This document shows positions 38,161 through 40,044 of a DNA stretch of 64,000 nucleotides, one piece after another; position 1 is the stretch's first letter; the number at the start of each line of letters is the position of its first letter. A program made the translations under genes and the position numbers. Source of the stretch: Fusobacterium sp. JB019. Lineage in GTDB: Bacteria; Fusobacteriota; Fusobacteriia; Fusobacteriales; Fusobacteriaceae. The notes below the pieces were generated by a model. The model worked only from the letters and a program-made list of their open reading frames with translations, had not been told where the DNA came from and searched no databases. The stretch lies in the NCBI GenBank assembly GCA_030673965.1, contig JAUTCN010000022.1, positions 1 to 64,000 on the forward strand. The letters are read 5' to 3'.

Positions 38161-38220
38161 AAAAAAAAATATAAAAAAATGTAAAAAAACCTTTGAAATT
38201 GTTATAAAGTATGATATAAT
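38161..38220 (+). promoter_or_regulatory. Promoter of the S10-spc ribosomal operon, with A-tract upstream region
   Basis: TTGAAA (38193-38198), 16 bases, TATAAT (38215-38220), with TG plus one base before the -10. The 30 bases before the -35 are almost pure A-tracts, like an UP element that binds the alpha subunit. A leader of about 54 nt follows, with an A/T-rich hairpin (TTAATT...AATTAA) before the AAAGGAGGTG site. Confidence 0.8.
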
Positions 38221-38280: not shown

Positions 38281-38589
38281 ATGTCTAGCAAATTAAGAAT
38301 CTATTTAAAAGCTTATGATCACATGTTATTAGATCAATCAGCTAAAAAAATAGCGGAGGTAGCACAAAAGTCAGGAGCTGAGATAGCAGGGCCAATGCCA
38401 CTACCTACAAGAATAAAAAAATACACTGTATTAAGATCAGTACATGTAAATAAAGATTCAAGAGAGCAATTTGAGATGAGAGTTCACAGAAGAATGGTAG
38501 AAATAAAAAATTCTACTCAAAAAACTATATCATCATTAACAGCTGTAAATTTACCAGCTGGAGTTGGAATCGAGATTAAACAAGCGTAA
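38281..38589 (+). CDS. rpsJ: 30S ribosomal protein S10
   Basis: S10 is part of the 30S head and also the NusE partner of NusB in antitermination. The 102 residues are full length ([40 protein letters not shown]). First gene of the long ribosomal superoperon. The ribosome-binding site is the strong AAAGGAGGTG. A 168-base non-coding gap separates it from rplC, much longer than the other gaps in the operon. Confidence 0.98.
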
Positions 38590-38757
38590 TTTGAGGCAAA
38601 GTATAATGGCTGATTCTCGGGTAATTTGAAATTAAATATAGGTTGAATCAAATTATCCTTACAGAATAATACAAGTTGACGCTTTTTTTAAAGCAAACTC
38701 GTGGAACCACGAGGTCAAGTTGTCAACCGATATATTATTTGATGGAGGTAAAAAGAA
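38590..38757 (+). ncRNA. Candidate structured leader RNA of rplC-rplD (ribosomal autoregulatory element)
   Basis: The rpsJ-rplC gap folds well on inspection. Hairpin P1 has GGGTAATTTGA (38619-38629) with TCAAATTATCC (38648-38658), one G-U pair, extended by ATTCT/AGAAT (38613-38617/38663-38667). A three-way element follows: outer GTTGAC (38675-38680) with GTCAAC (38722-38727) enclosing GCTTT-TTTT-AAAGC (38681-38694) and CTCGTGG-AA-CCACGAG (38698-38713). The P1 loop GGTTGA (38641-38646) is also complementary to TCAACC (38723-38728), which would form a pseudoknot in competition with the outer stem. The site is 15 bases before GGAGG of rplC. Regulation by L4 or L3 is inferred. Confidence 0.6.
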
Positions 38758-39384
38758 ATGTCAGGAATTTTAGGAAAAAAAATTGGAATGACTCAAATCT
38801 TTGAAGACGGGAAATTTGTTCCAGTAACTGTTGTAGAAGCTGGTCCAAACTATGTTTTACAAAAGAAAGAAGTTGAGACAGAAGGATATGTAGCATTACA
38901 ATTAGGTTTTGATGAGAAAAAAGAAAAAAATTCTACTAAACCAATGATGGGAATATTCAATAAAGCTGGAGTAAAACCATTAAGATTCGTAAGAGAATTA
39001 AAAGTTGAAACAGTTGAAGGATATGAACTTGGACAAGAAATAAAAGCAGATGTTTTAGAAGGTGTTGAATATTTAGACATTACAGGAACATCAAAAGGTA
39101 AAGGAACTGCAGGTGTTATGAAAAGACATAACTTTGGTGGAAATAGAGCAACTCACGGTGTTTCTAGAAACCATAGACTTGGAGGTTCAATAGGACAATC
39201 TTCTTGGCCTGGAAAAGTTTTAAAAGGGTTAAGAATGGCTGGACAATATGGAAATGCTACTGTTACAGTTCAAAACTTAAAAGTAGTTAAATTAGATGTT
39301 GAAAACAATGTAATCTTAGTAAAAGGTGCAGTACCTGGACCTAAAAATGGATACGTTGTATTAAGACCAGCTATAAAAAAATAG
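38758..39384 (+). CDS. rplC: 50S ribosomal protein L3
   Basis: L3 is an early assembly protein near the peptidyl-transferase centre. The 208 residues start MSGILGKKIGMTQIFEDGKFVPVTVVE and include the tip loop FGGNRATHGVSRNHRLGGSIGQ with the usual Gln. Site GGAGG lies 11 bases upstream and at the foot of the structured leader, so translation may be controlled there. rplD follows after 27 bases. Confidence 0.98.
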   Translation: MSGILGKKIGMTQIFEDGKFVPVTVVEAGPNYVLQKKEVETEGYVALQLGFDEKKEKNSTKPMMGIFNKAGVKPLRFVRELKVETVEGYELGQEIKADVLEGVEYLDITGTSKGKGTAGVMKRHNFGGNRATHGVSRNHRLGGSIGQSSWPGKVLKGLRMAGQYGNATVTVQNLKVVKLDVENNVILVKGAVPGPKNGYVVLRPAIKK

Positions 39385-39411: not shown

Positions 39412-40044
39412 ATGGCAGTTTTAAGCATATATAACTTAGCAGGAGCACAAACTGGAACTGTTGAAGTAAATGATACTATATTTGGAATTGAACCAAATAA
39501 AATAGTACTTCATGAAGTACTTACAGCAGAATTAGCAGCAGCTAGACAAGGAAGTGCAAATACTAAGAACAGATCCGCAGTAAAAGGTGGAGGAAGAAAA
39601 CCTTTTAAACAAAAAGGAACTGGTAGAGCTAGACAAGGAACAATAAGAGCACCACATATGGTTGGTGGAGGAGTTGTTTTTGGACCAACACCTAGAAGTT
39701 ATGAGAAAAAAGTAAATAAAAAAGCTAGAGTGTTAGCTCTTAAATCAGCATTATCAGCTAAATGTGCAAATGGAGATATCGTTGTTTTAGATGGCGTTAT
39801 AGAAGCTCCAAAAACAAAAACTATAATTGAATTAACAAAAGCTTTAGGAGCTACAACAAAACAAATGTTTGTAGTTGATGACTTAACAGAACAGAATGAT
39901 TTTAATTTATTCTTATCTGCAAGAAATTTAGAAAATGCAGTAGTATTTCAACCAAGCGAGTTAGGAATTTACTGGTTACTAAAACAAAATAAAGTTATCA
40001 TTACTAAAGAAGCATTAGCAACAATTGAGGAGGTGCTTGGATAA
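39412..40044 (+). CDS. rplD: 50S ribosomal protein L4
   Basis: L4 lines the exit tunnel; in E. coli it represses its own operon at both transcription and translation. The 210 residues contain the tunnel loop ([35 protein letters not shown], given in part) and a normal C-terminal half. The stop overlaps the rplW start by one base. It is the most likely ligand of the leader upstream of rplC, an inference by analogy. Confidence 0.98.

What the first reader, a model, noticed from the sequence alone, without database searches (positions are those of the whole stretch)
38590..38757. Unusually long, structured rpsJ-rplC gap: possible new autoregulatory RNA with a pseudoknot switch
Seen: a 168-base gap inside an otherwise tightly packed ribosomal operon. 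It holds a long hairpin (38613-38667), a three-way element (38675-38727) and a P1 loop GGTTGA (38641-38646) that is complementary to TCAACC (38723-38728). That same strand also closes the three-way element with GTTGAC (38675-38680). The two pairings exclude each other and end about 14 bases before the rplC ribosome-binding site. Known: E. coli L4 regulates its S10 operon through a leader before rpsJ, not after it. Inference: L3 or L4 binds here to control rplC onward separately from rpsJ.
Basis: partly seen in the sequence, partly recalled or inferred. Interest (0 to 1): 0.65.

Follow-up and report, generated by a model that had tools for sequence, protein, structure and literature searches.

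The report
Conserved rplC leader hairpin RNA
Between two ribosomal-protein genes of a Fusobacteriaceae bacterium lies a small RNA hairpin, conserved across Fusobacteriota and some Clostridia, missing from Rfam and from the papers searched here, that very probably lets a ribosomal protein turn down translation of rplC and the genes after it.

Summary
The conserved core is a hairpin directly before the rplC Shine-Dalgarno: outer helix 38664-38671/38733-38740, a 3x5 internal loop (5' CAA, 3' CGATA here; usually CAATA), and inner stem 38675-38680/38722-38727. It is present at 89 of 90 Fusobacteriota rpsJ-rplC junctions read, once per genome by covariance-model search. It also occurs at the same junction in 24 sampled Clostridia loci, where the loop is kept while the helices are replaced by compensatory changes (outer ATA/TAT, AAC/GTT, GGT/ACC). 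Covariation score 0.61 versus 0.22 in shuffles. The outer helix ends within 4 nt of, or runs into, the Shine-Dalgarno; in Fusobacteriaceae CCTT also pairs with it. Rfam 15 has no match; the known S10-Clostridia leader lies before rpsJ and co-occurs. Most likely this is a new r-protein leader: a downstream-encoded protein (uL4 or uL3, unresolved) stabilises the outer helix and blocks rplC translation. The ligand is inferred.

The parts
38281..38589 (+). rpsJ (uS10), the gene upstream of the element
   Evidence: ORF and operon order; relatives in 89 Fusobacteriota loci
38590..38757 (+). rpsJ-rplC gap that holds the element (168 nt)
38619..38658 (+). P1 hairpin GGGTAATTTG...CAAATTATCC, an accessory 5' hairpin restricted to Fusobacteriaceae
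   Evidence: 86% of cells paired, 4 pairs with changes on both sides; different hairpin sequence at the same place in L088, L089, L097, L100, L118; absent in L124, L127, L135
38657..38660 (+). CCTT, anti-Shine-Dalgarno strand pairing with GAGG 38745-38748; shares CC with P1
   Evidence: RNAalifold consensus on A2; 99% of cells paired
38664..38671 (+). outer helix, 5' strand (GAATAATA)
   Evidence: compensatory changes across families and phyla
38672..38674 (+). internal loop, 5' side CAA (consensus Y-A-H)
   Evidence: alignments A1-A3
38675..38680 (+). inner stem, 5' strand (GTTGAC)
38681..38721 (+). variable apical region (4 to over 100 nt in relatives); in Fusobacteriaceae carries conserved GAACCACGAGG (38704-38714)
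38722..38727 (+). inner stem, 3' strand (GTCAAC)
38728..38732 (+). internal loop, 3' side CGATA (consensus CNATA, mostly CAATA)
   Evidence: alignments A1-A3
38733..38740 (+). outer helix, 3' strand (TATTATTT), ends 3 nt before the Shine-Dalgarno
38744..38748 (+). rplC Shine-Dalgarno GGAGG, the proposed target of occlusion
   Evidence: sequence; fixed distance to the core within each family
38758..39384 (+). rplC (uL3), first gene downstream; rplD (uL4) follows at 39412
38193..38220 (+). promoter-like site of the rpsJ operon (TTGAAA-16-TATAAT)
   Evidence: 11 of 12 matches to consensus; not evidence of function

Best explanation
A cis-acting ribosomal-protein leader inside the S10 operon. The RNA before rplC forms a hairpin with a near-invariant asymmetric internal loop (YAH/CNATA). 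Shown: the helices, loop, location, covariation and closeness to the rplC Shine-Dalgarno. Inferred: an excess ribosomal protein encoded just downstream (uL4 or uL3, unresolved; uL4 favoured slightly because it is the established S10-operon regulator in E. coli) binds the loop and stabilises the weak outer helix, in Fusobacteriaceae together with the CCTT:GAGG pairing. That hides the rplC Shine-Dalgarno and represses rplC and, through coupling, the genes after it, while rpsJ stays free. In Fusobacteriaceae P1 shares CC 38657-38658 with the anti-Shine-Dalgarno pairing, so P1 would favour the open state.
For: Present at 89 of 90 Fusobacteriota junctions read; R2 finds one copy per genome in 86 of 98 genomes. 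The same loop and topology lie at the same rpsJ-rplC junction in 24 Clostridia loci although the helices differ. On 38 sequences from both groups: 93.9% of cells paired (shuffles 74.9, slid versions at most 42.2), covariation score 0.606 (shuffles 0.224 +/- 0.020, slid at most 0.116), 73 cells changed on both sides. On an rpsJ+rplC protein tree these are several events: 2 at each of pairs 9-53 and 10-52, 1 at 15-45, 17 at 19-41. The outer helix ends within 4 nt of the Shine-Dalgarno or overlaps it in every Fusobacteriota sequence tested; imposing it costs about 1 kcal/mol (0.1-3.3), so it is poised. In G097 a 12-of-12 sigma-70 consensus sits in the gap just before the element, so there it is probably a true 5' leader of rplC. 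No Rfam match. Clostridia with the element can also carry the known S10-Clostridia leader before rpsJ.
Against: No ligand has been shown. A naive search of the own 23S rRNA for the loop found no convincing mimic. Free-energy predictions already bury much of the Shine-Dalgarno in Fusobacteriaceae without ligand, while in Leptotrichiaceae imposing the helix lowers accessibility only moderately. In three families (L136, L145, L168) the outer helix is only 3 bp and does not lower predicted accessibility. No expression data.
Confidence: 0.72

Rival explanations
1. The hairpin is an mRNA processing or stability element: a nuclease cuts or a hairpin protects the 5' end of the rplC part, so that rpsJ and the rest of the operon are made in different amounts. 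No r-protein binds.
For: Position between the first gene and the rest; extra stable hairpins in Fusobacteriaceae; highly variable apical part.
Against: A near-invariant asymmetric internal loop with freely covarying helices and a fixed distance to the Shine-Dalgarno within each family look like a binding site coupled to translation, not a generic cleavage hairpin.
Confidence: 0.12
2. Passive translational tuning: the hairpin merely sets rplC initiation (or re-initiation after rpsJ) to a fixed level, with no trans-acting ligand.
For: Outer helix runs to the Shine-Dalgarno; A-U rich helices are easily opened.
Against: A passive structure does not need identical unpaired nucleotides (A of YAH; C, A, T, A of CNATA) across two phyla.
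Confidence: 0.1
3. Transcription attenuation: the element controls a terminator in the gap, as uL4 does in the E. coli S10 leader.
For: uL4 is known to act this way before rpsJ in E. coli (review PMC10931766).
Against: No intrinsic terminator on the + strand between rpsJ and rplC; the T-run in the window is missing in many relatives.
Confidence: 0.03
4. One reading: P1 loop GGTTGA pairs with TCAACC and competes with the GTTGAC stem.
For: The complementarity is present in the window.
Against: 34% of cells paired in 30 relatives, loop partly deleted in 10 of them; absent in congeners L084, L085; P1 itself absent in L124, L127, L135 and in Leptotrichiaceae with short gaps.
Confidence: 0.02

Closest known systems
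S10-Clostridia ribosomal protein leader (Rfam RF03136; S10 r-leader of Firmicutes)
   Same: Cis-acting leader in the same S10 operon, partly in the same Clostridia.
   Different: Lies before rpsJ, not after it; different sequence and structure. Both elements occur in the same operon in L195, L197, L199, L200, L201, L213.
uL4 leader of the E. coli S10 operon
   Same: Regulates the S10 operon by an r-protein encoded in it.
   Different: Sits before rpsJ and acts on transcription (attenuation) and translation; narrow distribution in gammaproteobacteria (PMC10931766). The window matches no Rfam family.
Archaeoglobi L4 r-leader (Eckert and Weinberg 2020, PMC7247131, Table 1)
   Same: Putative leader before rplC, rplD, rplW, rplB.
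   Different: Archaeal and rated borderline by its authors; its sequence could not be compared here.
Fusobacteriales S4 r-leader (PMC7247131)
   Same: r-protein leader in the same order of bacteria.
   Different: Regulates the rpsM-rpsK-rpsD operon; its conserved GUAA motif is not part of the core found here.
rpsJ motif RLC-47-1 of Peptostreptococcaceae (PMC11109978)
   Same: r-leader candidate of the S10 operon in Clostridia.
   Different: 5' UTR of rpsJ.

Membership tests
Ribosomal-protein leader (general kind) | Consistently just upstream of r-protein genes | tested here: met
   89 of 90 Fusobacteriota junctions and 24 Clostridia loci, all before rplC
Ribosomal-protein leader (general kind) | Conserved secondary structure with covariation | tested here: met
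Ribosomal-protein leader (general kind) | A way to alter expression of the downstream gene | tested here: inconclusive
   Outer helix at or in the Shine-Dalgarno; no expression data
Ribosomal-protein leader (general kind) | Specific binding of an r-protein from the regulated operon | not testable with these tools
   needs a binding experiment; 23S mimic not found
S10-Clostridia leader RF03136 | Covariance-model match at or above gathering score | tested here: not met
   no match in the window; in the Clostridia RF03136 matches a different place, before rpsJ
E. coli-type S10 (uL4) leader | Position before rpsJ with an attenuator terminator | tested here: not met
   element lies after rpsJ, no + strand terminator in the gap
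T-box riboswitch | Conserved UGGN bulge motif and Rfam match | tested here: not met
   GTGGAACCACG looks like it in the window, but UGGN is lost in L083, L092 and others and Rfam does not match

The most novel reading that the evidence does not exclude
The loop YAH/CNATA is the binding site of uL3, which would be a new kind of r-leader ligand; together with the separate S10-Clostridia leader it would split S10-operon control into two independent feedback points (rpsJ; rplC onward), in two phyla.
Probability: 0.33. Interest if true: 0.65.

Novelty: new member of a known kind. Interest (0 to 1): 0.52.

Why it matters
How Fusobacteriota and many Clostridia balance their largest ribosomal operon is not known to me from the papers searched. 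A minimal hairpin (core under 40 nt in some species) with a clear loop motif is an easy binding and reporter target and could become a new Rfam family. Finding it in two phyla with swapped helices suggests either an old regulator or repeated evolution of one binding site.

Tried and rejected
R1 and the count used a structure typed one column off; both were discarded and redone as R2. Two structure strings were rejected by the counter. The scan of viral contigs with the loop pattern returned many matches that were not followed up. R3 over Bacillota sampled largely the same genomes three times, so it is no independent test of Bacilli. R3 hits in L340 and L341 showed no rpsJ or rplC nearby and are taken as chance. 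23S mimicry: the only CCAATA in the own 23S is near its 3' end; all paired candidates looked like chance. A try to get the Rfam 23S structure for a fragment gave no match. T-box and manA (14.6 bits, gathering 55.2) were considered and rejected. A conserved leader peptide was rejected: the 8-codon ORF in the window is not kept in other genera. Literature: the searches found no report of an rplC leader in Fusobacteriota or Clostridia, but only open-licence papers are held and supplements could not be read.

Full report
Observation. The window carries rpsJ (38281-38589), then 168 nt, then rplC (38758), followed closely by rplD, rplW, rplB and so on. The gap folds better than dinucleotide shuffles (z -2.92). 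rpsJ has its own promoter-like site about 60 nt before its start and no Rfam leader.

What is conserved. rplC was located in 90 of 98 Fusobacteriota genomes and the junction was read from all of them. The gap is 88-202 nt in Fusobacteriaceae, mostly 46-83 nt in the other families, and 9 nt in one genome (G001), which lacks the element. All others share ATAYAH-GTTRN...NYAAC-CNATATAT (or a close variant) directly before the Shine-Dalgarno (L088 and L089 have GTCAATCGATATAT). The core is a hairpin: outer helix, 3x5 internal loop, inner stem, and an apical region that ranges from 4 nt (L163, L165) to over 100 nt (L152). RNAalifold finds this fold without prompting on both the short set A1 and the Fusobacteriaceae set A2. 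On A1 97.4% of cells pair, with 19 cells changed on both sides against 3.6 in shuffles.

Second phylum. A model of the core (R2) found one copy per Fusobacteriota genome, at the junction. It also found a match in an uncultured Clostridia genome (L062) exactly between rpsJ and rplC. A further model search and a loop pattern search in Clostridia gave 24 loci at rpsJ-rplC in all. The loop pattern fixed the loop and a few inner bases but left the outer helix and the N:N pair free, so their covariation is not produced by the search. There the outer helix is GGT/ACC or AAC/GTT instead of ATA/TAT, and the second inner pair is C-G in one clade. On 38 sequences the covariation score is 0.606 against 0.224 +/- 0.020 in shuffles and at most 0.116 when slid. 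Counting on a protein tree shows repeated events, not one inherited change. This is strong evidence for a functional RNA and for the internal loop as the recognised part. Whether the Clostridia copy is homologous or convergent is open: on the tree the two groups separate cleanly.

Fusobacteriaceae extras. P1 (38619-38628/38649-38658) pairs in 86% of cells with some compensation and is replaced by another hairpin in two genera. TTACAG follows it, and CCTT can pair with GAGG of the Shine-Dalgarno in 99% of cells. The sequence GAACCACGAGG is conserved in the apical part while its apparent partner is not (57% paired).

Mechanism. The outer helix ends 3-4 nt before GGAGG in Fusobacteriaceae and directly at or in it elsewhere; the core-to-Shine-Dalgarno distance is 16, 11 or 8 nt and constant within each group. 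Imposing the helix costs about 1 kcal/mol, so a ligand could tip it. In G097 a perfect sigma-70 consensus lies in the gap just before the element, as expected for a leader that serves rplC onward independently of rpsJ. A protein-stabilised block of rplC initiation is therefore the best explanation. Which protein binds is not shown. uL4 is the established regulator of this operon in E. coli (PMC10931766); uL3 is the nearest gene product. No 23S look-alike was found to decide it.

Known or new. No Rfam 15 family matches the window or the Clostridia element; RF03136 (S10-Clostridia) lies before rpsJ in the same operons. The list of 20 r-leaders by Eckert and Weinberg has an L4 candidate before rplC only in Archaeoglobi, and an S4 leader for Fusobacteriales; the 50-genome survey has an rpsJ motif in the 5' UTR of rpsJ. 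So this is a new member of a known kind, r-protein leaders, with an unusual place inside the operon.

Limits. E-values of R2 and R3 are rough. Large searches used strict filters that lose weak matches, so the range in Clostridia is a lower bound. Structure and ligand binding remain to be tested at the bench.

Noticed in passing
L195, L197, L199, L200, L201, L213: These Clostridia S10 operons carry two different leader-type elements: RF03136 before rpsJ and the new hairpin before rplC.
   Followed up: partly
L046 and L051, rpsJ-rplC gap: Tindallia and Anaerovirgula have another conserved-looking element there (hairpin followed by CGCTGTAAGATTA just before the Shine-Dalgarno), without an Rfam match at that place.
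   Followed up: partly
L012, L013, L014, L026, L063, rpsJ-rplC gap: Peptococcaceae-like genomes share an ACACCCG-type stretch in the gap; possibly yet another rplC leader.
   Followed up: no
L168:277-305 (- strand): Perfect TTGACA-17-TATAAT with extended -10 inside the rpsJ-rplC gap of G097, just before the element.
   Followed up: yes
window 38698-38714: CTCGTGGAACCACGAGG resembles the T-box core sequence; the GAACCACGAGG half is conserved in Fusobacteriaceae for an unknown reason.
   Followed up: partly
window 38606-38629: Short ORF ATGGCTGATTCTCGGGTAATTTGA (MADSRVI) without a clear Shine-Dalgarno; kept in congeners but not in other genera.
   Followed up: partly
L143 and L152, apical part of the hairpin: Two Leptotrichiaceae genomes of one genus carry insertions of about 90-110 nt in the apical loop while the core is kept.
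   Followed up: no
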